The notes beneath the pieces were generated by a model. It searched no databases, was not told where the DNA came from, and was given only the letters and a program-made list of their open reading frames with translations. A program made the position numbers and the translations under genes. 64,000 nucleotides of DNA from Cordia subcordata (lineage: Eukaryota > Streptophyta > Magnoliopsida > Boraginales > Cordiaceae). The stretch is taken from contig JAPTOF010000003.1 in the NCBI GenBank assembly GCA_028554755.1, positions 30,150,001 through 30,214,000 on the forward strand, written 5' to 3'. Below are positions 22,248-63,880 of the stretch, piece by piece (the first letter of the stretch is position 1; the number at the start of each line of letters is the position of its first letter).

Positions 22248-25200
22248 TCACATGACGAGTGCTGCATAGAGGAGTTGGTTCCAAGTATCGGGAAGTCCAG
22301 GGAGGCACCAGTGGCTACAATCGACGCCTGAATGCTCACCACTGTAAGTTGAGGGGTGAGCATCTTTTCTTAGTTGGGAGAGCGCTGTGATATCAAGCAG
22401 ATACACTGGTTTCTTCATCCCACTCAATACTTTTTTAACAACGTCTGCTGCTGGAGGCATCCCTGCTGGATATGTTGGTCCTGTTAATGGTTGGAGCTCC
22501 CCGTTGCAGTTTTTCGACGCTGATCCCCATTCCTTTCCCCTGTTAAAAAGAAAGAAAAGCGTTCCTCTGAAATTAACTAGGTACTCTCGTGGAATTATTG
22601 AAATCGGTAAATAAATACAACACACCTTAGAAACTAGGTACTAGAAAAAAATTCTAGTTTTAACTCTCGTTACTCTCCATTTGTAGAACCATGTTCACGT
22701 GTAAGATTCAATCAAAAATAAAATCCATAATACACTTGAGGGGGCCAGCTTGAGGGTTCATTATGGTAGGCCTCGGCTCCCACCAAGAATTTATCAGGGT
22801 CATACTAGGGGCAGATATAAAATCATCTTCTTAAGGGAATTTGAGATTTGTTAGCAACTGAAATGCCAAGAAAAGCTTTAAATGAGGTTGAGGAATTATT
22901 CTACAAAATTTCAGTCGCACAAAGAATTTATTAGGATCATATTCAGTAATAGTTCAGCACCGGATTTCAAGTTATTTCCTAAGGTGTGTTCATAGAGAAA
23001 TACGATGTATTACTAAACACATTGGGACATGTAAATGCATATATACGATCATATTGCTACAATTAAAGGTCCTTGTGATGTCTAGACTCAAAAATAATGT
23101 GGAAAAGTTTACGAGGTTTAAAATCAATCACTTACTGGTAATGAGTGGGTGAAATTCCCTGGAAGAAGACCTTGGTCTTAGAAGGGTCAACATTGAGGTC
23201 AACCCATCGCGCCCAAGTTGTCATGCCTTTGTAATATGCCGTTAGGCGGTCCATATCTTTGGAGATTTTTGAACCATCTTGTATGTAATCCCATCTGCAA
23301 TTAAAAATAATAATAATAACTATAGCAAACCATTTAAATAGCAAACAACGGTATGTTTCTTCTCTTCTGTTTAATTTTATTATTCTCTTAAATTTTTGAC
23401 AAGTACAGACGCATTTGGGATAGAAGTGTTGCAATCATTATTATTAAATTGCGCATTATAGTCTTTATTGATTGAAAAATATTAAATTCACGGAAAGGGG
23501 AGATTAGTTTTGTTGGACAAATATTTTGTGCATGGTTTAATTAAGGGGGGAAGACGAGGAAAGTTTCGTACGATTGAGATTTGCCTTTGTGAGTCCACCA
23601 GTGCCAGGAGTTGAATATCAACATGTCCATTCCTTTCCATGCATTGCCTTGTTGAATCGAGTCCAATTTCAACACTCGCCCTATGTTCTGTCGTACAATA
23701 TCCACCAAGTATGGTGTTCTGTAAAGAATCATGGTTACTGCATAACCCTGCAAAAAAAAAAGAAAAAAAAAAAGAAAATTGGGATATGATTATTTGTTTT
23801 TGTTTTAGAAGTGAGAAAATAATCATATTTCAGTGGCCCTCGTGGCACAAGGGGGGCAGGAAAACAATTTAAAAAAAAAAGAGTTTATTTTAATTGAATT
23901 GTTTCTATACTAATGACTCTGAAAGAATAACCAAACAAAACTTTTCTACAGCGTTGTCTGCTTTGTGTTTTCAATGTTGAGAATTCTTCATTGACCACAA
24001 AGGTCCTTTGAGTTTACTTTTCAATTGATTTTTGTTTTTTTTTTTTTTTATGTACTTGTCAGTTGGTAGAGCTGTCTGCTGAGTGGTGATTGCGGACTAG
24101 CTACGTTAATCGTTCGATGCATAAAAATAGTAATCTTACCAAACTCCGATAAATACTTACAGATTAAAATTTTACAACATCTCCTCCTTGAAAGGGATTA
24201 TAGCATTATTTTTAGAATTCTTTGCTGAAATTAAGATTAATACTTATAGAATTATATCTCCTCCGATTTGGATAATGTTTTTCAAGATTTAACACCTCTA
24301 TCTTGTCCGAAAAGCTTTTTGAAAAGAATTTTTCATCACAAAAAGAAAAATAAAATATATTCTGCAATTACAAATGGTGAAAAAGCAACTGCCCTTTTTC
24401 GCTTAGACAGAACAGAGAATGTAACCAAAAAAAAAAAAGCCAGATATCGACAGAAAATAACAATAGATAATCATTGAGAAAAAGTCATTTTACCGAAGAA
24501 GCACAGTGGACTAAACAACTTTAATTATTAGAAATTAGAAATACTATATTTTCATAATAAGATGATGGAGTATGCTACCTCGAAAGTCACAGAAGAAAGT
24601 GACTCCTTTCTCACAAAGCTGGCCTTGGCATTCGGCACCGACGCATGAATCATGCACGCCAATGATTCCCACATGTTCAAGCTCAGCGAGTCGCCCACAA
24701 ACATAATTTTCTTCCCCCTCCATCTCCTCAGGAAATCCAAACCATTAAACCTACAATATTCATTTAGCGAACAATTAGTAATTACATCGAAAAAAGTATG
24801 AAAAAATTCCACCAGGATGAATTTGACGAAAACGATTGCTAACGTAATGAGAGGTCACCCATTGTCATGCAGGGCGAGATTTGTATTTTCATCCTTGCAC
24901 GGGAACTCGTCTAAAACCTTAAACTTGTATTAAGGAAACACTAGTATACCAAGCATTTGCAAGTTTGCTGCAAACTTTTACATTCTCTTGCAGAGCAAAA
25001 GTATATGCTCTAGCATGCAAATGACATATTACTAGAAAAAGAGATACGGGTGACGGGAATTAGCGACGGAAAAGAACGTACGGGACTTACCTTGGTATGT
25101 TACAGGAGTCAGGTTTCCAAGAGTACTTGAGGTATTGTTTATCAGGGCGGCCATATTTTTGGCAGTCAAACTCAGGGTCAATGAATGGGCAGCTTGAAGA

Positions 25201-25389
25201 TTCATAGAGAGGATATGAAGCATCAAACACCCAGTTCCCTTGAAACAAGTTGCAGCCACCGGCTAGCTCTCTACCTCTATGAATAAAACCACTGACATTG
25301 TGTACTACCAGCTCTGCTTTTAAACCTCCTACTAGTAAGGCAGCGACAAAGAGGAACGCTTGAAGAAGAACCACACGGTGAAAAAACAT
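22248..25389 (-). CDS. Trichome birefringence-like (TBL) polysaccharide O-acetyltransferase, copy 2
   Basis: Five exons, 25389-25091, 24750-24579, 23747-23572, 23294-23136 and 22539-22248, give 365 residues. It has an N-terminal hydrophobic anchor ([17 protein letters not shown]) and the TBL domain ([17 protein letters not shown]). The GDS motif is intact (Ser about 121 in FVGDSLSLN), as are WHWWTHKG and the terminal [15 protein letters not shown] (Asp about 342, His about 345). Exons 2-4 have exactly the lengths of its neighbour, showing that the two arose by tandem duplication. The proteins differ in the luminal stem and in the GDS flank (SRNQW versus SLNMW), so substrate or expression may have diverged. 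A minus-sense TATA-like TATATAAA lies at 25567-25574. The predicted role is wall polysaccharide O-acetylation in the Golgi; the acceptor is not deducible. Confidence 0.93.
24049..24125 (+). mobile_element. tRNA-like SINE fragment inside a TBL intron
   Basis: CAGTTGGTAGAGC (24060-24072) is a classic tRNA A box, and CGTTCGATGC (24111-24120) resembles a B box at tRNA-like spacing. The flanks do not pair into an acceptor stem, so this is a SINE or tRNA pseudogene remnant. It sits in the 0.8-kb intron between exons 2 and 3 of TBL copy 2. Confidence 0.45.
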
Positions 25390-43938: not shown

Positions 43939-44031
43939 TTTCTATTCAAATATACTTTTATCTAAAGCTTTATTGCTATAAGCTTTACAGTTCGACAATT
44001 AAAATCTCATAGTTAGGCCAAACAAAACTAA

Positions 44032-45238
44032 AAGGTTGTTTGGTTTAGCTTTTAAGCTGGTCAAACCTATGTAAAGCCCATTTAAACTAGTAAACGTGTT
44101 TGTTTTAATTAAAAAAAAATGCTTTTCTAAACAGCTTTAAGCAGAAAATAAGAAGCTTCCCACCTCTAACTTCTGTTTTTTATGAAAAAGAAAATTTGAC
44201 CAAATCATTTACTATCTTATCCTTTCTTTTTTGTCTTTGTTATGAAAATATCTTTACTCTTTTATTTATACTTACCCTTTTATCTTTATTACTATAACTT
44301 ATTTTTAGGTCCTTTAATGTTTATTACTATAACTTATTTTCATGTCCTTAGCAGTTTATTTTAACAATATAAGTTACTTTCTGACATATTTTAACCGAAC
44401 ATGTAAATACTTATTTTTATGAGGGTAAAATGTCTCGGACCCATTTATGGTCTATTATAAGTGCACAATACTCTTCTGTGGTGTCAAAAATCTTACAACA
44501 ATCCCTTGTAATGAGGAAAAGTTCCACGCGCACCACTTGTCTAAACTTTCCCTAATGGTGTTAAAAATGTACTGTAAAATTACATTAATACCCTTACCTT
44601 ACTCATTTAATTTTTTTTATCCTATATAAGTGGTATGTTATTGAAACTATTTTATTGAACAACGATTTTCCAGGGAAACATAAACTAAAATAAATTTACT
44701 GTTTAAGTTATAATTCGCGCCTTATAATAGCATGTCTTACATTTACATATAGTCCGAAATTATCAACAAAAGAGATTTTGTAACCAAAAAAAAAAAAAAA
44801 AACTTTACAAAGTAATACTATAAAGTGCCATTAGTAGATAAAAGTTGGCTGGTATGTCAACAAAAATGAACCTCCTTTCTTTTTCTATTTTTGGATCGAA
44901 GATGATAATGAACCTCAACAGATCAAATTCATCAACCGTATTCTCCATGTCTATTATTTAGTATTTTTGTGCTATATATATATATAAAAAACAGAATTTT
45001 ATAAGAAAATTTTTGTTTTTGTTAATTGTTATGTATTTGTTTAACAAAAATAAAATAAAAATTAAACAAGTAGGGGAAGGAGGATGCTGCGGACTTATAG
45101 TAAATTTATCTTTTTTATAATTATAACTTTTATTTAAATACGTAACTAAGAGTCAAAAATTAAAAAAAAAATATTTAAAACTAAAAATACTTTAATTAGC
45201 TTTTCAATAATCAAATCCAAAAGCCCTCTGAAACTATG
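44032..45238. mobile_element. Tourist/Harbinger-like MITE split by a 0.7-kb insertion
   Basis: This is the same family as the element at 63415-63880, in the same orientation. Shared stretches include 'gtgtttgttttaatta', 'aagcttccca' and 'gaccaaatcatttactatct'. The ends read AAGGTTGTTTGG and CCAAAAGCCCTC, flanked by TAA on the left and TGA on the right (a mutated 3-bp target duplication). Alignment to the intact copy breaks after TTATTTTTAT (44411-44420) and resumes at TTTTTTATAA (45111). The roughly 690 bp between (44421-45110) are therefore a nested insertion of unknown type. The insertion has no recognisable protein. Confidence 0.7.
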
Positions 45239-47902
45239 CAAATTAAGTAGATACGAAGCTTGCTTAGTGGAGCTTTTGTCTAATTCATGTTCAAACTTCA
45301 AGCCTAGGTAGGGGAGGGCTTGAGATCTACCCTCCTCAACACATTCTTTTGGATGTATGGATGTACACAACAATTCTTCGACCACCCACCTCACCGTTGA
45401 ACCTTGAGGCACACGTATCACATATCACATCTACTTTGAAATCGGGACATGCAATAGAGGGGAAAATCTCATATATAAGATTATTTATCACTCCAATCAA
45501 TTATTATGAGACGTTTTTCCTTCAACAGCATACCATACAAGAAAATTGGATCAAGACAAAAGAATTACACAAATTATTTCTTAACTAGAAACGGGCGCTC
45601 GCATAATTTCGACTCCGCCTTGATGTCACTACTCAACAGCAGACGCCTCGGAGTGGCTTTGTGTCAATGTTTCACATATTTATGAACCATGTCATTTACT
45701 CATGATCCCACCTCCACCCGCAAAACAATGTGCTCAACCATCATATTGCCAAAGATCTTTGCCGAAGAGGATCCTTTTTCTTTTTCTTGTTCTCTCACCC
45801 TTGCGGAATAGGTTTTCCTCTTGCGCGCCAACATAGCTTGCGCAGGATCTGGCAATATGCCGTGCACAATTCACAAATACCACCTGGTCAGCCCCAGCCC
45901 CCAACTCTTCTGAACAAACCTTGCCCTTCCAAGTTCAAAATAAGTGCCTCATGTCCGATGGAAAAAGGAGAAAAGCAAAGGGCAGGGGAACCACAACTAA
46001 GATTCAAGTCTAGCTTCAAACGTCCCTGCATCAGCATTTTTAACCATCGAAGTTTGCTTATTGTGAAGCCAAAGTACAAAAACCTCAAGAAAAGAACAAC
46101 TCACAAGGAAGTTATAACCTATTTCCAGAAGGCAACTGATACTATCTACAGGTTAACGTGAGAATTTACACTAATAAGAGACTTCAAGGACAGAAGGACA
46201 AAGGGTCTCATTTTCTTCTTTTATTTTTTACTTTCTCTGTGTTGTGAGCACTTAACATTCACTTCTAATGCAGATAATCCAAAAGAGACGGGAAAAAAAA
46301 GTTAGAGACCTCAATGTATGAATTGGGAACAAAACAATGGCCAGAGAGGACAGAGAAAAAGTAAAACAAAAACTATGCATCAGATTAATTTTGGTCATCA
46401 CATTAAGCTAATATAGTAATCTGAATTCCAGAATTAATGAAGTTAGTTTTGTTTAAGATGAGCAACTCAACAATTGATAAATCAAAACACAAGTTGAGCA
46501 GCAACTTTCATGAACCAAGAAGGCCGAGTAAAAGTGCCTTGAGAAGAATCTCGGTGATAAATTATACCCATGATTAAAAGAACCCACCTATAGGAAAAAT
46601 ACACAAACAAATAAGAAATTTGGTGTGAACTCATGGGTGTAACTTATTATACAGATTTCTACATATACTCTGGAAGTACACTGAAAAACTTTGTTTGCAG
46701 GCCCTTCTTTCATCCTTTACTTTTATCCAGGGATGAATATAGCTTTCTAGCTTCCATCAGTATCGAATGAAACAGAGAATAAAGTTGCATTCAGCTTGAT
46801 GCATCTCCCATAAACTGGCTACAGAAGACAGAAGGCAAAGACAAGCAGAACACAACTCTAATGTACCACAAAGCATGCATCAAGCAGAATGATTCAGGGC
46901 TAGGACTCCAGCAATTTCTTCAGAAACACATACAAGTTCCATTTATACATTCACAGAACGCAGAAGTCGCATTTTAGCTAGCAAGCAACATCGTTGCTAG
47001 TGTTGATCAGCCAGTGTAAAGCACCAAGATTCACTCACTTATAAAATTAAATCAACTTGTATAGCAGTCCATTTTCCACTCATTAGCCAATATTAAGTCC
47101 ATCTTAACCAATAAAAAGAACGTAGGACAACCATAGAATAGTCAACCAGAAAGGATCCACAGAATGGAACTTAGACCATATTAACTCAATAGTTGATTCA
47201 GTGACTCAAAGGCAAAAACGTGTAAATATAATCAAAACCATGTTTTACAATTTTAGCTTTATTATATCCATGGTCTTTACAAATACCATATAGAATAAAA
47301 GATGATGTTTTACTTCAATAAGAAAAGAAGTTGTCGAGAAGAACTGGTAGTGGAACTTGCTCAAGCTAGAGAAATAGAACACTTGGGAGAAGAAGATAGA
47401 TCCCCCAGCAACATCCCCCCTAAACTGAAAGGAAAAATAGTAATAGAAAGAAGAAAATCAAAGAAGTGGAAAAGGCTGTAGCCCAGTAACAAGCCTTTGA
47501 TTTTCGGCTACGAGAAAGGATAATCAGAATAGATGTCGATGTCGTTAATGACAAATGGGATCAATAACTAAGAAAGGATTGTCTTCAAATTTACATATAG
47601 AGGTCCAGAAACACACATTTGCCTTTCAGCTACTGCCCGAATTTCTTTCTCTATCTGTCTTTTTATGACTACGTCATATTTTTCAAATATAACGCCATGG
47701 AAAAACATATTCATCCACACACACCCCCAAAAAAAAAAAAAAGGAATAGCAAATGAAAGACTACATAAAGTACAATTAGAGATGGCAAATGTATTAGAAA
47801 TCAACTGATAAAGAGAACCAGTCTAGAAGTATAATATCACATAATACAGCAACATCTCCAGCAGCAAAATATTAGCCTAATCATAGGAACTACAGCTAAG
47901 GC

Positions 47903-48049
47903 CACAAAACCACAACTTATAAGCAGATAGTGAAGCAGCAACAGATGTACAGCAGCCATTTTATCAACCAAAGATGCATTGTCTGCAAGCACGTAATCAC
48001 CAAAACCATTTAACGCAATTACGCCAAAGAAGCTCTTGAATACCTGACA
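47903..48049 (-). promoter_or_regulatory. 147-bp invariant 3'-flank element, copy A (putative UBA2 3'-UTR exon)
   Basis: Every one of 147 bases is identical to 53469-53615, although the surrounding duplicated DNA has diverged. In the gene's sense (minus) it starts within a splice-acceptor-like TTATCTGTCAG|GTATTC, so an exon could begin at 48043. It lies about 0.79 kb downstream of the stop codon. The minus strand is open through it (VFKSFFGVIALNGFGDY...). Identity at all codon positions argues against simple protein constraint. Low similarity resumes at once on the left side; on the right, a further 30 bases are still very close. Confidence 0.75.
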
Positions 48050-48836
48050 GATAACCATATATCACAATCCATCATTCAACCATCAAACATAAAATCAAGT
48101 TTGTGCTAGAAAAGATATTAATGCTATTTGCAAGATGGCACTTGAAAGAAATATATCATACAGAAGAAATGAAGAGCCAGATTATTTAGAAACAACTGAA
48201 AAGAAATATTGGCATCTATCTAAGATCTAATTAAAAAAAGAGTAACAGACAACAAACAGACACAAAAATGAATCACCAAACTAGCCAAACCAAACTGAAA
48301 GGTTTTTATGATACAAATATTGTCTTTAAAGTACACCCATCAATTGGCAAACACTTCCCAACACTAATTGAAGTGACCATGAAAAATCTAAGAGAAGGTT
48401 AAGATACAGATGAAAGGGGTGAAGTGTTGCACCAAAACTAAATCACAAAGGCCTCAACGAGGCCCACCATAAAAGACCAAGCAAATGGTGAGCTTTCCAG
48501 AGAAGAATTGTAATAAAGGATATATTAACTCTAGATTTTGAAACTGACAGCCAGCAAAAAGTGATTTATAACCAAAACTCTCAAACTGATCTACACTGAC
48601 TTTTTGCACCTTGACAGCCAGCATAGAGAGAGCAATTACAAATAGAAGACAATATGTAATTCTTACACAATTAAACAAATTGGACAACTGAAACTCGATG
48701 GTTAATTAAGCCAAAATTCACAGATTAGGTACTAAGCATATCAAATTAATTAAACCATACCAGTGCTAAATACCAAATCGGAATATAAAGAACTAATTTA
48801 CCAAGGTCCGAAGTTGTTGTAAGAGAATAATTTACC

Positions 48837-50033
48837 TCAGTAATAGGGTGGCATGCCCTGATACATTCCGCCAGATGGGCCTCTTGGCCCTACACCCGGT
48901 TGCGGCACCTGCGATGCATAACCTGATTGTGCCCCATAATTTCCGCTATCTGGATAGCCTCCTGAACTTGGCATTCCCATAGAACTTGGCGGCATCCTAT
49001 ATCCTGCTGCATTGTTCAAACCACTACCATAACCTCCGGCACCAACACCAGCTCCAGGTCCACTACCGTACTGTGCCGCAACACCAGGCCCATACCCACT
49101 AGGAGGAAACCCTGCCCCTTGGTTCCCGTATCCAGGCCCAGCCGGCCCAGTCATATTTGGAAGACCCATTCCAGGCTGCTGGGGAGGGGCACCCTGATAT
49201 CCAGCATAACCGCCATAATTAGACCCTGCCTGCATCGGTGAAACTCCTATCTTATCATCAGAAGGCATTCCAGCATTCGGTTGCTTCCCCTTCTTATTGT
49301 CCGTAGCAAACTTACAGACCACTTGGTGCCCATCTATAGTTTTCATAGGATCAACCAATGACGCCCGTGCTCCTTGCTCCGTTTTATACACAAAAAATGC
49401 AAAACCTTTCGCCTTTCCTGTCTGTTTATCGAACCCTAAAGGCCCTTCCTCAATTTCCCCGTACATCGAGAAATGCTCCAACAACCTTTCCGATGATATT
49501 TCAAACGGAATGTTTCCAACGTAAATCTTACGGGCCGCCACGTCAGCAGAATGTGAACTCCCGGAATTGCCAGCTGCCGCCAGCTGCGTAACCGTTATGC
49601 GGCCATCGATTTTCTTGTTGGGTTCTCTGAGGGCTAAAACAGCCCCGTCGATGTGCTTAAAGGTCACGAATCCATAGCCTTTGGATTTTCCGGTGGCCTT
49701 ATCGGTGATTACTATCGCCTCGTCAATGACGCCGTATGCTGAGAAGACGGACCGAAGGCTTTCCGTTGTGGTCTCCCACCCAAGGCCCCGAATGAAGAGC
49801 TTCCGCTGCGCGGTGTCTGCGTCCGCAACGCTGCGGACGGCTTCGAGCACATCGGGGTGGCGGAGGAGAGCAGAGCGAAGGATTGGGACAAGTTGCTCCT
49901 TCGATAGATTCTCTAGGATTTTGTCTGCGTCCTCTGCGGAGAGGACAGTAGGTGGTGCTGCGGTGGAGACGTCCCCGGGGACAGGATACGCGCTGCCGTT
50001 CTCGTCGGCTTTGCGCTTCTTTGAGAGATCCAT
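48837..50033 (-). CDS. UBA2-type RNA-binding protein, two RRMs, copy A
   Basis: A single-exon CDS of 398 residues. The N-terminus has a basic KKRK and an acidic/Leu-rich helix ([18 protein letters not shown]). RRM1 is at about 78-150 with RNP2 LFIRGL and RNP1 [11 protein letters not shown]2 is at about 168-245 with IYVGNI and KGFAFFVY. The tail is a Gly/Tyr/Pro-rich low-complexity domain ending MPPYY. This is the UBP1-associated protein 2 (UBA2) family, most like UBA2c: nuclear hnRNP-like proteins that bind U-rich RNA and function in mRNA stability and stress signalling. It is one of a tandem pair with the gene at 54322-55527; the RRMs are almost identical and the Gly-rich tails vary. Directly after the stop comes G|GTAAAT, a strong splice donor, so the 3' UTR is probably spliced. 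Both promoters share a telo box. Confidence 0.95.
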
Positions 50034-50074
50034 GTGCTGTTTAGTGGGGAACCTAAGAGAGAGAGAGAGAAATT

Positions 50075-50081
50075 AAACCCT
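50075..50081 (-). promoter_or_regulatory. Telo-box, UBA2 copy A
   Basis: AAACCCT(A) lies about 45 bases upstream of the ATG and is kept in copy B at 55583-55589. Telo boxes (AAACCCTA) are common close to the start sites of plant translation and RNA-binding genes. Confidence 0.55.
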
Positions 50082-50370
50082 ATAGAGAGAAAAGATTGCT
50101 TTTAGGTAAAACCTTGGCGTAAACAATCAGTATATACAAATAGAAGCGAACTTTGGAGCAAAAAGGCTTCGTTTGAGAAGATATTAGTCTCGTTCAGGCC
50201 TGCCCAAAGTCCTCGTCTCTGGACTGGACGTATCCAGTTATAATATCAGTCGGGACTGGATCTAAGAAAACTAGTTTCAGCTAAAAATAGACGGGTTGTA
50301 TTTGGGCCCGTCAAACGTGCAGTTTGGATTAGACTGGCCGCGATATTATCGTCGATATCAGATCCTACCA

Positions 50371-51499
50371 AACTAATTTCAACTATTTCTTATAAACATG
50401 GAGGTAAAGTGAAATAGGAAGCTAAATGGTCACAGTGTAACAGTGAGTTTCTCTCTCTCTCTTTTTTTTTTTTTTTTTCATTCCATACAATGTTAAACGG
50501 TCACAATGTAACGGTGGGTTTCTCTCTCTGTCTCTTTTTTTTTTTTTCTATTTCATACAAGGTAATAAACGGTCATAATGTAAGGTGACTTTCTCTCTTC
50601 TTATCTTTTCTATGCAGGGTAATAAATCTATTGGAAGCCCATGGATCTCATCGAAGCCCAAAGAGAAGCTCAATCTGCACAAGAGTTTGCTTATATGCAA
50701 GCCTCCTAATTAGAATTGTAATTACAATTCTCTATGATTGGTCGAAACTTACTGATCGATTGAGATGTCCTCTTAATAAATGCACAAATGACTGTCAAAT
50801 CCGTTTCAACCTTCAAAATATTTGCGGTAATGCCAGCCTCAATCCTTTGCAAAGGGCCATTGGCTCTGCTTTATTATTCAATGACGTACTAAGGTTGATG
50901 GTTTAAACTACACATACAATCCTATTACTATCTCGGAAACTCCCTTGTGCATACAATAACTAAGTCTTCTTAGGACACCCAACAATATTGAGCTTAAGCC
51001 TCACTAATCTCTTTTCTCGTTTCTACTTTGTATGTGCAACCTGATTATCGTTAAGTCTCAAGGTTTCCTCAAATTCCCTTCAGCCAAACCAAAGAGTAAC
51101 GGCAAACAAAACATTCCATCGAACCCCAAGCTTGGCCGACTATCCTTAAGGTTTCCGTCCAACCAATGGAGCCAATCGATCTGGAAAAAACTTTGGCAAG
51201 GAACATGAGTTTAGCTCGTTGAAATTGTCAAGAGATTAACAATGTAGACATATAAAAAAAATCAACACACGCAACACTTTTTATTTTAAACTTACCTAAC
51301 CCTAAACCCACAAAACGTTAATCTATATATGTGTCACCTATTCAAACTGTTAAACCTAAGGTCTAAAAGCATTAGACCTTGTCAAGATAAGAAATTTCGT
51401 ATTTTAAATATAAAAGACTTAATTGTCAATTAGTCATTAATCCAACCATAATTCTTTGTTCAATGAAATTTCAAACAAATATACGAGATTGCTTTGGTA
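50371..51499. other. Spacer between the UBA2 duplication units
   Basis: Apart from the triple repeat at 50428-50628, no feature is recognised. The open frame at 50631-50906 shows no known domain. Confidence 0.5.
50428..50628. repeat. Triple tandem repeat with pyrimidine tracts, period about 72
   Basis: Three degenerate units start at 50428, 50499 and 50571. Each begins GGTCAYARTGTAA, continues with 'tttctctctct' and a poly(T), and ends 'catacaa.gtaataaac' (unit 3 is shorter). They lie just upstream of UBA2 copy A. Confidence 0.75.
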
Positions 51500-53468
51500 T
51501 CCAGTCCAATAGAGGGGAAAATCATATATAAGATTATTACTTCAATCAATTACAATAACCGCTTTCCCTTCAATAGCATACTAAATAAGAAAATTGGATA
51601 AAAACAAATGAATTTGACAAATGTTTTTAAACTAGAAACTGTTGCAGCTGCTTGCATAATTTCAACTCCCAATTTGATGCTGCCACCCAACAGCAGTCAG
51701 CAGATGCTCCAGAATGGCTTGTATCAACTATTCACATATTTCTGAGCCACATCTTTTACTCACGATCACATTTGCAAATACAAATGCTACCTATTTGCCA
51801 CCAACCCCATCATACTGCCAACATCTTTGCCCAAGATAAGGAATCGTCTCCTTTTCCTGAGTCTCTCATCTTTGCCGAATGTGTTTTCTTGTTGCAACCA
51901 ATATAGCTTTGCATAACTGGCATTGCGCAGAAAGGCATATTACCGTGCATGATTCACAAACACCACCTACCTGGTCAGCCCCCACTCTCAACAAGTCTCA
52001 CCTTTCCCCGTTCAAATCAGTCCTTCCTGTTGACAGCAATAGAAAAGCAAGGGGGCAGGGGGACCACAACTAAGATTTTACTCTAAAGCTTCAACGTCCC
52101 TGCATCAGCATCTTACCATGAAAGCTTGCTAACTATCAAGCACAGGAACAAAAATCTCAAGGAGAAAAGGAAAAAGCAAATACACGAGTCTAACTTATTA
52201 TATACAGACATCCATCATACACTCTGGAAGTACTTTGAAAAGGTTCATTGGCAGGGCATTCTATCTTTCTTTACTTTCATTGAAGGATGAATATAGCCTT
52301 CTAGCTCCTATCAAGGATGGAATAACATAGAGAATAGAGACGCATTCAGCTTGATGCCTTGGCTAAGTTTAGATTTGCTACAACCATCGGAAGGCAAAGA
52401 CAAGCAAACAACACATCTGATGTACCACAGAGCATGCATCATGCAGAATGATTCCTGGCTAACATTCCAGCAAGTTCTCCAGAAACATGTACACATTTTT
52501 GTACATTTACAAAGGGCTGAGATCACATTTTACCTAGTAAGCAACATCCTCAGGAATCCTCAGGAATGTTGATCAGCCAGTGTAAAGCACTAAGTTTCAC
52601 ACATATATAATTAAACCAACTTGTATTTCAATTCAATATCCACTTGTTGGCCAATATTAAGTCCATCTTATCCAATCAAAAGAATGTTGGAGAAACATAC
52701 AATACTCAAACATAAAGGATCCACAAAATGGAACTGAGGCCATATTAATTCAATACTTGATTCAGTGACTCAAATGCAAAAAGTTGTAAGAATTATCATA
52801 ACCAAATTTCACAATGTTAGTTTAATCATATCCACAGTCTTTCCAGGCATTATCTAAAAAAGCAAATGACACTTTACTTCAGTTGAAAAAAGGAGCATCA
52901 AGCGGTACTGAATTGGATCTTGCTCAAGCTAAGGAAACAGGACACTTGGCAGAAGAAGATAAAAAATTTCTCAACACCCTCTCCCTCCAACCAGAAGGAA
53001 GGGGGAAAAAAAGATAATAGAAACAGCAGAAGAAAATTGAAAAAGTGGAAAGGATCTGCAGGCCAGCAGCAAGGCTTTGATTTTTTGCTACAAGAAAGTC
53101 TAACCACAACAGATCTAGATGTCATTAATGAGAAATGTAAACAATAACTAAGAAAATATATTGCCTTTGAATTTAGATATAAAGGTCCAGAAATAGATAT
53201 TCGCCTTTCAGCTACAGCTCAATTTGTTTCTCCCTGTCTGTCATCTTTATGAATAAGCCACATTTGCAAGTATAATGCCATGGAGAACATTTTCATCCAC
53301 ACAGAAAAAGAATAGCAAGTGAAAGGCTATATAAAGTCACAACTAGAGATAGTAAATGTCTTAGAAATTAACTAAAAGAACTTCTAGAATTAAATTGTCA
53401 CATAATACAGCAACATCTCAAGCACAAAATATTAGTCCGATACTCTAATCATAGGAACTAGCTAACGG

Positions 53469-53615
53469 CACAAAACCACAACTTATAAGCAGATAGTGAA
53501 GCAGCAACAGATGTACAGCAGCCATTTTATCAACCAAAGATGCATTGTCTGCAAGCACGTAATCACCAAAACCATTTAACGCAATTACGCCAAAGAAGCT
53601 CTTGAATACCTGACA
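53469..53615 (-). promoter_or_regulatory. 147-bp invariant 3'-flank element, copy B (putative UBA2 3'-UTR exon)
   Basis: It is identical base for base to 47903-48049. In the gene's sense it follows TTATGTGTCAG|GTATTC, the same acceptor-like context apart from one base. It lies about 0.71 kb downstream of the stop of UBA2 copy B. Confidence 0.75.
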
Positions 53616-54321
53616 CATAACCAGATATCACAATCCATCATTCAAATTTCAAACATATAAATCAAGTGCCAGAAAGATAGAGGTGCTATTCACAGTATGG
53701 TGCTTGAAAGAAACATATCGTACAGAAGAAATACAGAGCCAGATGATCCACACATAATTGAAAAAATATTGCCATCTGAGACCTAATTAAAGAAAGAGTA
53801 ACAGACAACAACCAGATACAGAAATGAACCACCAAACTAGCCAAACAAACTGAAATGGTTTTATGACACAAATATTGTCTTTGCCAGGCCCATCAATTGG
53901 TAAACACTTGCCGACACTAACTGAAGTGGCCAAGAAAAATCTTTAAAAAAATTGTTAGATTACAGATGAAAGAGGTGAAGTACTGCACTAAAAGTAAACT
54001 GACAGCCAGCAAAAGTGATTTATCACCAAAATCTCAACCTGACGTTAATTAAATATTTTGGAACACGACATCCAGCATAGAGTGCGCAATTATAAATATA
54101 AACAATATGTAATTCTATTACATGTGAACACAAATGAAACTTGGGTTAATTAAGCTACAATTCATAGAATACGTTTTATGGCATATCAAATTAATTAAAC
54201 TGGCGCTAACTACATTACAAAGAACACATTTATCAAGATTCAAAATTGTTATATGAGAATAATCACATTATAAAGAGCACATTTATCAAGATCCAAAATT
54301 GTTATATGAAAATAATCTACC

Positions 54322-55527
54322 TCAGTAATAGGGTGGCATGCCCTGATACATTCCACCGGGTGGGACTCTCAACCCCACACCCGGCTGTGGTCCCTGCGAT
54401 GCATAACCTGATTGCACCCCATAATTTCCACTGTCTGGATACCCTCCTGAACTCGGCATTCCCATTGAACTTGGTGGCATCCTATATCCTGCAGCATTGC
54501 TCAATCCACTACCATACTCTCCAGCACCAACACCAACACCAGCTCCAGGTCCACTACCATACTGCACACCAACACCATGTCCATACCCACCAGGAGGAAA
54601 CCCTGCCCCTTGGTTTCCAAAACCTCCTGGCCCAGCCGGCCCAGTCATATTCGGATGACCCATCCCTGGCTGCTGCTGTGGGCCACCTTGATATCCAGCA
54701 TAACCACCATAATTAGACCCCGCCTGCATTGTTGAAACTCCAACCCTATCATCAGACAGCATTCCAGCATTGGGCTGCTTCCCTTTCTTATTGTCCGTAG
54801 CAAACTTACACACCACTTGATGCCCATCTATAGTTTTCATAGGATCAACCAATGATGCCCTTGCTCCTTGCTCCGTTTTATACACGAAAAACGCAAACCC
54901 TTTAGCCTTTCCTGTCTGTTTATCGAACCCTAAAGGCCCTTCCTCAATTTCCCCGTACATTGAGAAATGCTCCAACAACCTCTCCGATGATATCTCAAAC
55001 GGAATGTTTCCAACGTAAATTTTACGGGCTGCCACGTCAGCAGAGTGTGAATTTCCGGAATTGCCCGCAGCAGCCAGCTGCGTGACAGTTATGCGGCCAT
55101 CGATTTTCTTGTTGGGTTCTCTGAGCGCTAAAACCGCGCCGTCAATGTGCTTAAAGGTCACGAATCCATAGCCTTTGGATTTTCCAGTGGCCTTATCGGT
55201 GATCACGATCGCCTCGTCAATGACGCCGTAGGCAGAGAAGGCGGAACGAAGGCTTTCCGTTGTGGTCTCCCATCCAAGGCCGCGAATGAAGAGCTTCCGC
55301 TGTGCGGTGTCGGCGTCCGCGACGCTGCGCACGGTTTCGAGCACATCGGGGTAGCGCAGGAGAGCGGAGCGGAGGATTGGGACAAGTTGTTCCTTCGACA
55401 GATTCTCGAGGATTTTGTCTGCATCCTCCGCAGAGAGGTTACTTGGTGGTGCTGCGGCGGAGACATCCGCGGGGATAGGATAGACGCTGCCGTTCTCGTC
55501 GGCTTTGCGCTTCTTTGAAAGATCCAT
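54322..55527 (-). CDS. UBA2-type RNA-binding protein, two RRMs, copy B
   Basis: A single-exon CDS of 401 residues with the same domain plan as copy A: KKRK N-terminus, RRM1 (RNP1 KGYGFVTF), RRM2 (RNP1 KGFAFFVY) and a Gly/Tyr/Pro-rich tail ending MPPYY. Differences in the N-terminal 100 residues are few (for example LRHPDVLEA versus LRYPDVLET, and SVFSAYG versus SAFSAYG). The tail has three extra residues ([10 protein letters not shown]). Both genes look intact and functional. The stop is again followed by a donor-like G|GTAGAT. The role is as for copy A; having two close copies suggests dosage or expression divergence. A frame of 156 codons on the plus strand at 54246-54716 is antisense to the tail and is not a gene. 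Confidence 0.95.
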
Positions 55528-55582
55528 GTGTTCTTGAATTCGTTTGTACTTGAATTGGGAACCTAATAGAGGGAGAAAAATT

Positions 55583-55589
55583 AAACCCT
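55583..55589 (-). promoter_or_regulatory. Telo-box, UBA2 copy B
   Basis: AAACCCTA about 60 bases upstream of the ATG, conserved in position with copy A in otherwise diverged promoter sequence. Confidence 0.55.
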
Positions 55590-55900
55590 AGAAAGATAAA
55601 GAACTGCTTTTAAAATAGAACCCTTGCGTGAAGCAATTCTCCACATACACTAGAGCGAGCGAGATTTGGAGCACAACGTTCCGTTTGGGCAGATGTTAAC
55701 CTCCCCTGGTTGCTACAGTTAGGCCTGTCCAAGATCCATTCTCAATTGGGCCTGTCCATTTAGTATATTGGTAGGGACTAGATCCTAAGCAAGTTTTAGT
55801 AAAAAATTTGGCTGGCATGTACAATGGTCCTATCAAGGTCCAGCTTAGATTGGATGGGCACAGTAATATTATAGGATGAGATCAGATCCTACAACACTAG

Positions 55901-56446
55901 ACCAGCCCAATGAAAATGGACTGGACCTCCCACAACGACGAGGAGTTCTTTTTTTTTTTTTTCTTTTTTTCATTTTAAGGGAGGCCAAAAGCTAATTACA
56001 ATATGAATCTTTAACGAAAATTCTTGGACCACTCACACTAATGGTGAGAGAGATATCATTAGACTACTAGGCCTTTTTTTAATCCTATAGACTATTTTGA
56101 AATTATAATCCCCGTAAATTAATGAAAATGTCTTTGAGGGTATAAGGAGTAAGAACAATTAACTCGTGAATCGTGAAGATATTTTGAGGCCAATATTAAG
56201 TAGAAAGTGATAAAAAAACTAAAATTTGTAATTCATTTATGATTGCAATTACAACTCATTAAAATTGTCTTAGCGGTGGAAATTTTTACAAGCTTGTCAT
56301 AAGTTTTGTCCACCCAGAAGAAATCGTTTTATTTCCACAATAATATACAAAGGGTGGGGGGTGGCATCATCTGGAGAAGTATTTAGAACTGATGATCAGA
56401 ATAAGCAACAGAAAATTTGCAATGTGAACAATAATAAGACGATTGA
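55901..56446. other. Short intergenic region
   Basis: Nothing is recognised except a poly(T) tract. It includes the 3' UTR side of the ARM-repeat gene that stops at 56447. Confidence 0.5.
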
Positions 56447-59400
56447 TCAGTAAGGTAAGCTCTTGGAACTTGAAGTTGCAGCCAAGGCCTTAAGCCCGGA
56501 AGAATCAGCAGAACCATTGGCCCGACGAGTAATTTTCTCGAGATTCTTGTACAGGCTTTGTTTTACGATACTCTTCATCAATTTCTTCCCTTCATCCACT
56601 TCCTTTTGACTTATTACAGGCGAAACGATGATGATTCTTCCGACCTGTGGCCCTGAATGATTCCCCATTTTCACTTGCCTTTCATTCTTGAACCACTGTA
56701 GTAGCTTTAGCGCTCTTTTCTGAGCCAAAGCGCTGCCTAACAAGGCCACTTCAAGAAGCACAGGAACGATTCCAGCCTTCTCCATTTTGTCTCTCTGCAC
56801 TGAGCTTTGATGAGCTAAGATCATCAATATGTAGGCGGATAATTCTTGACATTTTGCGTTCTCTTCCCATGCCAATGTCTCTATCAAGCACTCCGGCACC
56901 ATCGGGTTGTTTTCCAATGCCTTCTTCCCTGTCAAGGTTACCACTAGATTCGCTAAGGTCGACAGGGCTTTCTCCGATGCTTCTATTGATGAGGACAATC
57001 TTAAGAGAGTGGTGATTACCCCAGGCGTAGCCATAGTTGCTGCATTGTCCAATACTAAAGACAGATTGTGCAATGTGGCTAAACATAAGTTGATGGTTTC
57101 AATGCTTGATGAGCTTGACTCAAGAATGCACACTGCAAAAGCAATAATTCTTGATGAGGTGAGAGGGAATCCATTGTTGGCCAGAGATGACACAGACAAA
57201 AGCAACTCTGCATATTTCTGTTTAGTTGGTTCATCCATGGAATCCCCACTTTCAGGTAATTTTGATAAGATTCCTGCCTCCACCATGACAGCCTTGTTCC
57301 TGGATGAAAAGAAAAGTACAAATATGATTAGCTAGGAACTGGTCTAATATTAAATGTAAAGCTCTGAAGTCTAAACAGATAGAATAAGTTTTAATTAAGA
57401 AATTAGTTCTCACGAAACAAAAATCTTAAAAACGTCCCCACATCAATAAAACAATTATATCTGCAATTTATATCCATAAAGGCATAAACTACTACTACTC
57501 TACTAGGAAACAGATATAAACTAAGCAAATGGTCCGGGGGGGCTAGGACAAGTTAAGTTCAACTACGATCTACCTGTGGGGCACCTCATTGAAAATTGGA
57601 GCCAAAGCTAACAAACCAAGAAATTGAAAATTAACATTATGAAAGTAAGAAGTCAACAAGATTCCCAAAATGAGATCTGCGCTGAGCTTGAAGGTCAATA
57701 AATGCAGCTTTCTTATTGTCTATGGTACCAAGACAAATTGAATAAATTTCATTGACTATATATAATATATTATTAGTGACTTCAAAGGCTTGGAATTATT
57801 CCATTGAAATTCCAACTTTTTCAAACAAATCCTGGACTTTAGTGGACAGTCAGCGCTCCTTGTGGCCTTATATTTCCATGACAGGAAACAATAATGTATT
57901 ATTTTAGTCGATCAGTTGCTTTTTTTTTAAATGAAGGAAATGGCAAAAGATGATTTTTGCTCCATACTTGGAGTGGACCACTCATGATAAAAAAATTGCC
58001 TTAGTGGTTTCCATATGTATGGTGGTGGCTGAAGAGCGCAAAACTTCAACTGGGACCGTAAGAATAAGACTACAAAGCGAATAGTAAATGTTTTCACTGC
58101 CTTCACTGAAAACCACAACCAAATGCTTATATACTTTGAAGACAAATTCTTGCTTAGACTTAAAAGTGTAACCGCTAAAGCCAACTGCTAGTATATCATC
58201 GCCTAATCAACTAGAAACCTGTGATGATAATAGTAACGAATCTTATCTTACAAAAAACTAATATAAGAGGGTGTTACATAAATCACTAGTCAGACGTCAA
58301 ATCTAAGACAACATTTTCATAGTGCACACTGCCTGATGTCCTTCGTGGCTCCCGTGACCTCATTTTACCCTTCACATTATTGCCTCCGTATTCATCATGT
58401 TGGCCAAAAGTACAACAATCTTGGCTCTGGACAATCATATATTAGCCAAAATAGAGAAAACTCTTAAAAACTTTTTCTCGGAAAAACAAACTTCACGTGT
58501 TTGGTTACTGCATATACTAAAAAGTCAATAATGGCCACTAGGATCCACATCGGTTTCTAGCTAAGTTTTGGTTACTTACCAACCTCATCCTGTTGTGATA
58601 AAAAATGAAAGCTCATTAGATAATTGCTCATTTGACTTATATCAACTTTAAGAAAAACAAGAGCTGAACATATTTAATTTCAACGTCGTCCTAGCGTAGC
58701 AAAAAGAATAATATGCGCCAACATGAACTTCATTATTTCTAATACGATATTTTCTTTAAAAAAATGGACTTAAAATCCTGGATGAGATTGAGGGGAACTA
58801 TATCTAGCAATGTTGATTTAATATCAAAATACTTAAAATTGGTTCTGATATTAACAGTGTTGGAAAATTCAAATCACTATAAACAAAACACAATATCTTC
58901 AAAGAACTTATAATATGAAATATCACAATTATTTTGAATGGAAAGGTGAAATTTTTCTAGGTGGATTTTAGTAGTCAATTAAAATTAACGAGAATGTATA
59001 TATATGAGCAGGTGTTTTACAAATTAAACGAAGGTACAACCCAACTATTGTACAAAGATGAGCAAAAATCAAAACTAGTAGGCCTTAATTTGATTGTAAT
59101 GGAATTAATAGAACAGTAAAGGCGAAGACCATAAAAGAAACAACATTAAAAAGGACATTAATATTGGCGAATTAATATTAATTAACAATTAAAAAAAGGA
59201 CCACGAAAGAGAAAAAACCAACTTACGTGAAAGTGCCATCGGCGAGCTGAATCAATGCCTCAACCGCCAATCTTCGCCGCTCCACATTCTCGGAACCAAG
59301 CATCGCCACCAGGGGCTGTACAACGCCGAGCTCAGCCATCAATTTCCTCGTCTTCAAGTCTTGTTTGGCGAGCATCGTTATCTCCTCAGCGGCCTCCTGT

Positions 59401-62586: not shown

Positions 62587-63231
62587 CTAATTCAAAAGAG
62601 AATTTTTTATCTTCCTAATCATATGCACTTTACTTCTGATGTCGAATTCGATATTCTCAAAATTTTGTTTTTCCGTTGAGACATTTCTATTATGGATTCT
62701 CTGGTTTCGCTCCTTCCAGATATGGAAAACAAACGCTCCCAGAAAAAGTTTAGATGAGTAAGCTTGCAGTGATTGAGAATTAGCTTGTGAAATGAGCCAT
62801 TTAGACACCTCATCCCAATTTCTCAAGTTGCTTGGCCCCTTACACATCCTCCACCCAGAGTTCCATATTCTTTTAACAAAAGGGCAGTAAAAGAAAAGGT
62901 GCTCATGGTCTTCAATGCAGAAATGGCAGAAAACGCAAGAGGGATTAACAGAGAGTCCCCAGGAGATTAGCCTGTCCATTGTTGGAAACCTATTATGCCA
63001 TAAAAGCCAGCAATAAGGGGCATATTTGGGAATATGATGTTTAAACCAAACTATCCCATACCAATCCACCTTCTGTAACGGGTTTCTGATAAGCTCCAAA
63101 GCTGCTCTTTTCGAATATCTGCCATTAGGGTCATTAATCCAAACAACTTTGTCATTACTTGATCCATTTGGCTTCATATTTCCCAAGTTACGAAAGATCT
63201 CCGAGTAGATTGGATTGGAGTCATCCCACAC
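62587..63231 (-). pseudogene. LINE zf-RVT domain fragment
   Basis: This is the longest open piece of the LINE remnant, 214 codons. The CxxC...HxxxxC arrangement (CVFCHFCIEDHEHLFFYC) and the WLLWHNRFPT motif define the reverse-transcriptase zinc-binding domain. It is preceded in frame by a TAG stop, so it is a decayed piece and not a host gene. Confidence 0.85.
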
Positions 63232-63414
63232 CTAACTATCTTCATGAATAAAATCAACAACTTTCAAGTTGGGACAAATGAGTGAGTCAGCCAAGGAAAA
63301 GTATTCAGTCAACGAGCCAAAGGGATGCCAGTTATCATGCCAGAAGAGTGTACATTGCCCATTGCCAATAATGTGAATCAAAGCTTGACGAGCCACCTCT
63401 CTAAGAGGGTGTTT

Positions 63415-63880
63415 GGTTTGACTTTATTTTTTTTTCTGGTCAAACCTGCTTAAAGCCCAATTTAAGCTAATAAAAGTGTTTGTTTTAATTAGAAAAGTAC
63501 TTTTTTAAGTGACTTTAAGTAGAAAATAAAAAGCTTCCCAATCCTAACTTTTGCTTTTTATGGCTTTAATCATTTTGAAAAAAAGCAAGTTTGACCAAAT
63601 CATTTACTATCTTATCCTTACCTTTTTATTTTTATTACTAAAATATATTTACTCTTTGATCTTACACTTACCTTTTTAAATTCTATTTTAATGTCCTTAA
63701 TAGTTATTTTAATTATATAACTTACTTTTCAACCACTTTAATCAAGCGTGTAAATATTTATTTTTATAACTACAATTTTTATTCAAACACGTAACTACTT
63801 AAAATTGACAATAAAAAAAAAGTTGCTTAAAGCCAGAAGTACTTTAAGTAGCTTTTTGATAAGTCAATCCAAAAACCCTC
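63415..63880. mobile_element. Tourist/Harbinger-like MITE inserted in the LINE
   Basis: A 466-bp element with about 20-bp inverted ends: GAGGGTGTTTGGTTTGACTT, and the reverse complement of the right end GAGGGTTTTTGGATTGACTT, 18 of 20 matching. It is flanked by TAA on both sides (63412-63414 and 63881-63883), the 3-bp target duplication typical of PIF/Harbinger. Removing it with one TAA rejoins the LINE reading frame. It has no coding capacity and a diverged relative at 44032-45238. Confidence 0.85.

What the first reader, a model, noticed from the sequence alone, without database searches (positions are those of the whole stretch)
47903..48049. 147 bp without a single mismatch between the 3' flanks of two UBA2 paralogues
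The blocks 47903-48049 and 53469-53615 are identical at every base. Neighbouring duplicated DNA has many substitutions and indels, and the coding regions differ at many synonymous sites. The element lies about 0.7-0.8 kb downstream of each stop codon and follows a conserved acceptor-like sequence. It also contains an internal acceptor-like TGCTTGCAG. The simplest reading is a strongly constrained 3'-UTR exon or RNA structure that could autoregulate an RNA-binding protein. Local gene conversion is the main alternative. From memory, alternative splicing at the 3' end has been reported for Arabidopsis UBA2 transcripts, which would fit.
Basis: partly seen in the sequence, partly recalled or inferred. 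Interest (0 to 1): 0.78.

Follow-up and report, generated by a model that had tools for sequence, protein, structure and literature searches.

The report
Conserved 3'-UTR exon in UBA2C genes
Two neighbouring plant genes for an RNA-binding protein share a perfectly identical stretch that appears to be the start of a non-coding exon spliced on right after the stop codon; relatives in another plant order carry it too, so it is probably a control element rather than only a copying accident.

Summary
On the minus (gene) strand the block is 6 nt of intron end (TGTCAG) plus 141 nt of exon. A donor, TGAG|GTARAT, sits 1 nt after each stop codon. Two Oleaceae UBA2C gene models, Forsythia P0066 and Fraxinus P0064, have odd C-terminal tails which, back-translated, match the window's stop-codon exon joined directly to the block. 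The block's own acceptor edge is the best of 2114 (copy A) and 2049 (B) acceptor positions, and the base after the stop codon the best of 1888 and 1807 donor positions, for both proteins. The window groups with Lithospermum (Boraginales), so the exon is shared with Lamiales and is not merely a recent conversion. One-base gaps shift the frame, no fold stands out and no Rfam family matches, which points to RNA-level constraint. The perfect paralogue identity exceeds what cross-order constraint predicts under most assumptions, so conversion may have added to it. Autoregulation is plausible but untested. The host genome search did not complete.

The parts
48837..50033 (-). UBA2C-type coding sequence, copy A (398 aa, two RRMs)
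   Evidence: ORF; Pfam RRM_1 and RRM_7; UBA2C relatives
54322..55527 (-). UBA2C-type coding sequence, copy B (401 aa, two RRMs)
   Evidence: 92.7% amino-acid identity to A, dS 0.40
48044..48835 (-). inferred 3'-UTR intron of copy A (792 nt): donor TGAG|GTAAAT 1 nt after the stop codon, acceptor TGTCAG|
   Evidence: donor and acceptor conserved in both copies; junction matches two Oleaceae gene models best of 2114 acceptor and 1888 donor positions
53610..54320 (-). inferred 3'-UTR intron of copy B (711 nt): donor TGAG|GTAGAT, acceptor TGTCAG|
   Evidence: best of 2049 acceptor and 1807 donor positions
47903..48043 (-). exon part of the identical block, copy A (141 nt); 48043-47964 also matches Forsythia and 48043-47994 Fraxinus
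53469..53609 (-). exon part of the identical block, copy B (141 nt)
48044..48049 (-). TGTCAG intron end inside the identical block, copy A (same in B at 53610-53615)
   Evidence: sequence; acceptor scores 5.8 and 5.4 by home-made matrices
47983..48043 (-). 61-nt GT...AG stretch inside the block (GTATTC...TTGCAG): possible mini-intron or second acceptor
   Evidence: donor 3.9 in both copies, internal acceptor only 2.0 by home-made matrices; length and composition; no usage evidence
48227..48246 (-). further conserved acceptor-like site GTTACTCTTTTTTTAATTAG in the intron (B: last base 53783)
   Evidence: scores 7.2 and 7.1, the highest of the conserved acceptor-like sites; no usage evidence
47836..47902 (-). 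downstream shoulder with elevated paralogue identity

Best explanation
The block is the 5' end of a non-coding 3'-UTR exon of UBA2C genes, together with the last 6 nt of the intron before it. Splicing removes an intron that starts one base after the stop codon (TGA G|GTARAT) and ends at the block's edge (TGTCAG|GTATTC), so in the mature mRNA the conserved sequence follows the stop codon directly. That anatomy is well supported by comparison but not seen in transcripts of this plant. The function is inferred: the sequence is kept at RNA level, most likely because it influences whether and where this 3'-UTR intron is spliced, or the mRNA is cleaved and polyadenylated. That would tune the amount of an RNA-binding protein, perhaps by feedback from UBA2/UBP1 proteins, which bind U-rich 3' UTRs. 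Purifying selection explains the cross-order conservation. A recent short gene conversion may have removed the last few differences between the two copies.
For: Exact 147-bp identity against 79% flanks and dS 0.40. Conserved donor next to the stop and conserved acceptor at the block edge. Among the 120 listed UBA2C relatives (of 984 found), the best match to any translated 3'-flank frame is the odd tail of Forsythia P0066 (ALNGFGDYV, 9 of 9 residues, E 4e-4 to 5e-4). Back-translated, the Forsythia and Fraxinus tails beat 300 of 300 shuffled tails each, score 65.9 and 47.5 at the two blocks and at most 33.5 elsewhere in 64 kb on both strands; the runners-up, 48833 and 54318, are the stop-codon exon ends. 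Joining the stop exon to 48043 raises the scores to 87.4 and 71.0 in A, the best of 2114 acceptor positions; likewise in B. With that acceptor fixed, the last base before the donor is the best of 1888 (A) and 1807 (B) positions. Element side: 39 of 48 fully determined bases match for Forsythia, 24 of 27 for Fraxinus. The window copies group with Lithospermum (99/97), not with Oleaceae.
Against: No transcript data for this plant. The Oleaceae sequences are database gene models read only as proteins, and they were picked because their tails resemble the block; the other models of the 120 could not show the exon, because they end at the normal stop or have unrelated ends. In one search Fraxinus alone (E 0.05-0.07) is no better than an unrelated chance match (0.060). 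Chance donor joins elsewhere reach 79.4 against 87.4. Whether Oleaceae DNA still has the intron is unknown. Cross-order identity (81% and 89% of fully determined bases) is lower than the 100% between paralogues: under assumed neutral distances of 1.0-3.0, 0 differences in 147 bp has a probability between below 0.0001 and 0.15, so constraint alone may not suffice. Dedicated protein searches found no further carriers. The Arabidopsis UBA2a isoform pair that switches in the cold is reported as differing by polyadenylation, not splicing, and is UBA2a, not UBA2c. No evidence of any kind for autoregulation.
Confidence: 0.7

Rival explanations
1. Recent local gene conversion alone: the 147 bp was copied from one tandem gene to the other and carries no special function.
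For: Zero differences in 147 bp is more than the cross-order constraint predicts under most assumed neutral distances; tandem copies 5.6 kb apart are good conversion partners.
Against: At least 80 bp of the block is recognisable in another plant order with a matching splice junction; the upstream edge lies 6 nt before the acceptor cut. A neutral tract would have to land on the constrained exon by chance.
Confidence: 0.08
2. Constraint plus conversion: the exon is functional and a recent conversion event erased its few remaining paralogue differences.
For: Combines the cross-order conservation with the excess identity.
Against: The rate estimate rests on an Oleaceae side lineage that may be relaxed and on an assumed neutral distance; extra conversion is not required if constraint is stronger in Boraginales.
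Confidence: 0.4
3. The block contains a dual-use splice site: TCAG|GTATTC serves either as the acceptor of the long intron or as the donor of a 61-nt mini-intron ending at TTGCAG. The second use would put an exon junction well downstream of the stop codon and expose the mRNA to nonsense-mediated decay.
For: By home-made matrices it is one of only two donor-like sites scoring above 3 in both copies and the second-best conserved acceptor at the same place; the best conserved acceptor at 48227/53783 would define an exon of 183 (A) or 173 (B) nt before it.
Against: Both Oleaceae models use the site as an acceptor and Forsythia reads through the mini-intron; the internal acceptor scores only 2.0; 61 nt is very short for a plant intron (recalled); no transcript evidence.
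Confidence: 0.12
4. Protein-coding: the block encodes an alternative C-terminus.
For: One minus-strand frame is open through the block in both copies; two database models translate through it.
Against: Such an open frame occurs in 38% of shuffles over six frames and 24% over three. The Oleaceae frame reaches the exon only by reading out of frame past the place of the normal stop; one-base gaps relative to the window change the frame (two for Forsythia, one for Fraxinus). No homologue of the frame was found.
Confidence: 0.03
5. A structured RNA, snoRNA or microRNA embedded in the 3' flank.
For: Ungapped conserved block of typical small-RNA-gene size.
Against: No excess folding on either strand; no Rfam match in 46000-56500 at E up to 5.
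Confidence: 0.04

Closest known systems
Arabidopsis UBA2a (AT3G56860) 3'-end isoforms, PMC9264592 (passages read)
   Same: UBA2 family gene; isoforms with identical coding sequence differing far downstream of the stop; cold- and time-of-day-regulated
   Different: Poly(A) sites 1218 nt apart in UBA2a, not UBA2c; the authors attribute the pair to alternative polyadenylation, and the passages name no conserved element and no junction next to the stop
THIC 3'-UTR switch (riboswitch), described in PMC9264592 (passages)
   Same: Splicing of a 3'-UTR intron competes with a poly(A) site inside it and sets mRNA stability; a working model for how this exon could act
   Different: THIC has a structured ligand-binding aptamer; no structure stands out here
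Conserved poison exons of splicing-factor genes, e.g. Smndc1 (PMC11357089, start of abstract in a search listing)
   Same: Very conserved non-coding exons of RNA-binding or splicing-factor genes
   Different: Poison exons bring a premature stop codon; here the supported junction lies 1 nt after the normal stop and would not by itself trigger decay (50-55 nt rule, recalled)
Plant TFIIIA 5S-rRNA-mimic exon and GRP7/GRP8 autoregulated introns (recalled, not looked up)
   Same: Plant RNA-binding factors controlled by conserved alternatively spliced non-coding sequence
   Different: Mechanisms and, as far as recalled, sequences unrelated

Membership tests
UBA2 / UBP1-associated protein 2C genes | Two RRMs and a Gly-rich C-terminus ending like MYQGMPPYY | tested here: met
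   Pfam; relatives; C-termini
Conserved 3'-UTR exon (this element) | Splice junction linking stop-codon exon to the block | tested here: met
   Best acceptor of 2114 and 2049 and best donor of 1888 and 1807 for both Oleaceae models; indirect, from protein models
Conserved 3'-UTR exon (this element) | Presence in another plant order | tested here: met
   Forsythia and Fraxinus (Lamiales) versus a window allied to Lithospermum (Boraginales); matches
Conserved 3'-UTR exon (this element) | Transcripts using the junction in this plant | not testable with these tools
   No RNA data
Autoregulated unproductive splicing (poison exon or 3'-UTR intron with decay) | Junction more than about 55 nt downstream of the stop | tested here: inconclusive
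   Supported junction is 1 nt after the stop; a downstream mini-intron is only a candidate
Autoregulated unproductive splicing (poison exon or 3'-UTR intron with decay) | The encoded protein binds and changes its own pre-mRNA | not testable with these tools
   No binding or expression data
Riboswitch or structured RNA | Stable fold or known family | tested here: not met
   z +0.25 and -0.26; no Rfam match
Gene-conversion tract | Copies closer to each other than to orthologues in sister species, with edges unrelated to function | tested here: inconclusive
   Upstream edge lies at the acceptor; no sister-species DNA; host genome search unanswered

The most novel reading that the evidence does not exclude
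A deeply conserved splice switch sits at the very start of the UBA2C 3' UTR. One site, TCAG|GTATTC, can act as acceptor (productive exon placed right behind the stop codon) or as donor (mini-intron, decay). UBA2/UBP1 proteins or temperature would choose between the uses, a plant counterpart of ultraconserved autoregulatory exons.
Probability: 0.1. Interest if true: 0.8.

Novelty: new member of a known kind. Interest (0 to 1): 0.5.

Why it matters
Non-coding exons of RNA-binding protein genes under strong constraint are well known in animals and, as far as I recall, less so in plants. This case gives an exact intron, exon and junction in a gene family whose Arabidopsis members have reported cold-, infection- and SR45-related transcript variants. 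It turns a vague statement, UBA2 transcripts vary at the 3' end, into a testable element. It is also a case where constraint and gene conversion can be told apart with a few sister genomes.

Tried and rejected
Structured RNA: folds no better than shuffles, no Rfam match. Coding reading: an open frame is common in shuffles (38% for six frames, 24% for three sense frames; 122 of 696 flank windows), and the frame is not kept across orders. Small-ORF search of the protein database: no candidate. Chimeric search of the protein database for further carriers: 40 candidates, only Forsythia itself returned; Fraxinus was known. DNA pattern scans of the bacterial/archaeal and viral collections, hoping for plant contamination: nothing. 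Plasmid and phage records: nothing. Exact short words of the block in the paper library: 0 papers.

Literature: the listings showed no paper that, by title, start of abstract or the passages I opened, describes this element. The listings were capped (30 of 19,544, 20 of 1,610 and 8 of 4,363 papers). Bove et al. 2008, the paper on UBA2 splice variants, is not held, so I know it only from reference lists and recall. It may already show a 3'-UTR intron of this kind in Arabidopsis.

Corrections made on the way: first suggested that the Oleaceae tails matched the intron end as well (TCAG). Searches showed that the part before GTA is the out-of-frame end of the coding exon, so homology of the element begins at 48043. 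The counts (Forsythia 41 of 50 and 60 of 71; Fraxinus 26 of 29 and 38 of 43) include such positions; one search gives 39 of 48 and 57 of 68, and 24 of 27 and 35 of 40. The expectation table used 9/50 and 3/29 instead of 9/48 and 3/27, which slightly understates the expected differences. Its line labelled lower CI-ish (0.09) is my rounded guess, not a computed interval.

Full report
The observation. The two blocks are identical at all 147 bases and the match cannot be extended by one base on either side. They lie at corresponding places in a tandem duplication, 45452-50375 and 51507-55899. The 3' flank outside the block is 1496 of 1887 identical with 38 gap events, fourfold sites in the genes differ at 57 of 200, and NG86 dS is 0.40. 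After 147 the next longest non-coding run is 23; resampled flank blocks never exceeded 68 in 2000 trials. So this is no chance run. Identity is also raised beside the block: a 31-column scan at 93% marks 48079-47894 and 47875-47836, but also 9 other patches of 33-35 columns in the flank; the raw shoulder values are modest (32 of 37 upstream, 21 of 23 downstream with one gap).

The genes. Both ORFs are on the minus strand, 398 and 401 aa, with two RRMs. Their named relatives in the protein database are mostly UBP1-associated protein 2C and RRM proteins of flowering plants; 984 were found and the best 120 listed. In a tree of 39 rows (37 of those 120, chosen by me to span lineages, plus the two window proteins) the window copies are sisters (100/99) and group with Lithospermum (99/97), so the window comes from a Boraginales plant or close kin. 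These are UBA2c-type, whereas the cold-switching Arabidopsis isoforms cited below are of UBA2a.

Splice signals. Home-made matrices from recalled consensus values, so to be read as rough, leave two donor-like sites scoring above 3 in both copies after the stop codon: TGAG|GTAAAT / TGAG|GTAGAT one base after the stop (5.4, 3.1), and CAG|GTATTC at the block edge (3.9, 3.9). These signals alone would not decide.

The cross-order evidence. Of the 120 relatives, my end filter flagged 8; 3 of these are ordinary ends (P0026, P0041, P0047), and P0002, P0043, P0062, P0064 and P0066 are really odd. The best match between any 3'-flank frame of the window and these proteins is the block frame against the tail of P0066 (Forsythia ovata; ALNGFGDYV, 9 of 9; E 5e-4 for A, 4e-4 for B). 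P0064 (Fraxinus pennsylvanica) comes at 0.05-0.07, no better there than one unrelated match at 0.060; compared singly the E-values are 5e-06 and 2e-04. Back-translated and aligned at DNA level, both tails beat 300 of 300 shuffled tails (40.0 against at most 25.4, and 29.6 against at most 25.2). With another scoring they reach 65.9 and 47.5 at the two blocks; the next places in the whole 64 kb, both strands, reach 33.5 at most, and the best of those, 48833 and 54318, are the ends of the stop-codon exons. This showed what the tails are: the Oleaceae models read the end of the coding exon out of frame, pass the place of the normal stop, and continue into the element.

The junction test. I joined the window's coding-exon end (through TGAG) to every downstream position and scored the Oleaceae tails. 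The best join is 48043, the base after TGTCAG, for both proteins, out of 2114 positions in copy A (87.4 and 71.0), and 53609 out of 2049 in copy B (87.4 and 72.0). Joins shifted by one base score 4 lower. The halves alone score 26.5-29.5 and 42.5-60.9. With the acceptor fixed and the donor varied, 48836 is the best of 1888 positions and 54321 the best of 1807, for both proteins; the best donor more than 5 bases away reaches 72.9 and 57.0 in A, 79.4 and 60.0 in B. The two proteins had been picked because their tails resemble the block, so the element half of the score is not independent; the exact edges on both sides are. On the coding side 24 of 25 (Forsythia) and 31 of 34 (Fraxinus) positions are compatible. 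On the element side 39 of 48 fully determined bases match for Forsythia over 48043-47964 and 24 of 27 for Fraxinus over 48043-47994. Forsythia's tail ends at a stop codon that corresponds to TGA in the window, so its match may simply end there.

What this shows and does not show. It indicates that a UBA2C transcript or gene of Oleaceae has the stop-codon exon directly followed by this sequence, and that the window has the same two pieces 792 and 711 nt apart with splice signals at exactly those edges. The simple reading is one conserved 3'-UTR intron. If the Oleaceae copy were an intron-less retrocopy, the conclusion about splicing would be the same. It does not show usage in this plant, and no Oleaceae DNA or RNA was seen. 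It also does not show translation: the frame reaching the element is out of register with the normal protein, and one-base gaps between window and Oleaceae (two for Forsythia, one for Fraxinus) change the frame. The remaining models of the 120 say nothing for or against, since they end at the usual stop or have unrelated ends; dedicated searches found no further carrier.

Constraint or conversion. The sequence is older than this species, so conversion alone fails. But Oleaceae and window differ at 9 of 48 determined bases (Forsythia), while the paralogues differ at 0 of 147 with dS 0.40. With an assumed neutral distance of 1.0 to 3.0 between the orders, 1.9 to 12.1 differences would be expected and zero has a probability from below 0.0001 to 0.15 (computed with 9/50, 3/29 and a guessed lower value). 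I therefore keep constraint plus a recent conversion as a serious possibility. The estimate is weak because P0066 and P0064 form a side clade of Oleaceae UBA2C genes whose models lack the usual C-terminus, so they may be relaxed.

How it may work. Splicing places the conserved sequence directly behind the stop codon. A junction 1 nt after the stop should not trigger decay by the usual distance rule (recalled). Leaving the intron in, or cleaving inside it, would give a quite different 3' UTR. Passages of published work fit regulated processing of these genes, without naming this place: UBA2a and UBA2c are tabled with one intron-retention event each (PMC545797); UBA2a isoforms .24 and .12 share start and coding sequence but end 1218 nt apart, run in antiphase and switch in the cold, which the authors attribute to alternative polyadenylation after choosing pairs without alternative splicing (PMC9264592); UBA2C is listed among genes with SR45-dependent splicing (PMC5637254); UBA2A and UBA2C are among the differentially spliced genes on infection (PMC7563316). 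UBA2 proteins act with UBP1 on U-rich 3' UTRs (PMC545797 and PMC10826988), which makes feedback possible but does not demonstrate it. The bolder reading, a dual-use splice site with a 61-nt mini-intron, is not excluded, but the only cross-order evidence shows acceptor use.

Limits. Plant DNA from other species was not available; the window's own genome could not be searched in 18 attempts (listed in Tried and rejected); the most relevant paper (Bove et al. 2008) is not held. Novelty is therefore stated only against the searches named in Tried and rejected.

Noticed in passing
44028-44282 and 63401-63678: A 76% identical direct repeat pair lies outside both ends of the tandem UBA2C duplication; the neighbouring ORF 62587-63231 (minus) reads by eye like a LINE reverse-transcriptase end domain. 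Possible role in the duplication not examined.
   Followed up: no
19091-20868 and 22260-25257: Four collinear segment pairs at 73-78% identity suggest a second tandem gene duplication in the window, by eye of TBL-like genes.
   Followed up: no
48227 / 53783 and 48544 / 53999 (minus strand): Two more acceptor-like sites inside the inferred intron are kept in both copies, the first scoring above the block's own acceptor.
   Followed up: partly
P0002 (Rumex salicifolius, 685 aa): The protein looks by eye like two UBA2C copies fused in one gene model, and Forsythia P0020/P0066, Cornus P0060/P0080 and Sarracenia P0046/P0070 are listed with contigs of equal length, hinting that tandem or linked UBA2C pairs recur.
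   Followed up: partly
46637-48442 / 52188-53998: Similarity between the copies runs about 2.2 kb past the stop codons at 78-79%, above fourfold sites (71.5%) and above the 5' flank (69%), so more of the 3' region may be transcribed and constrained.
   Followed up: partly
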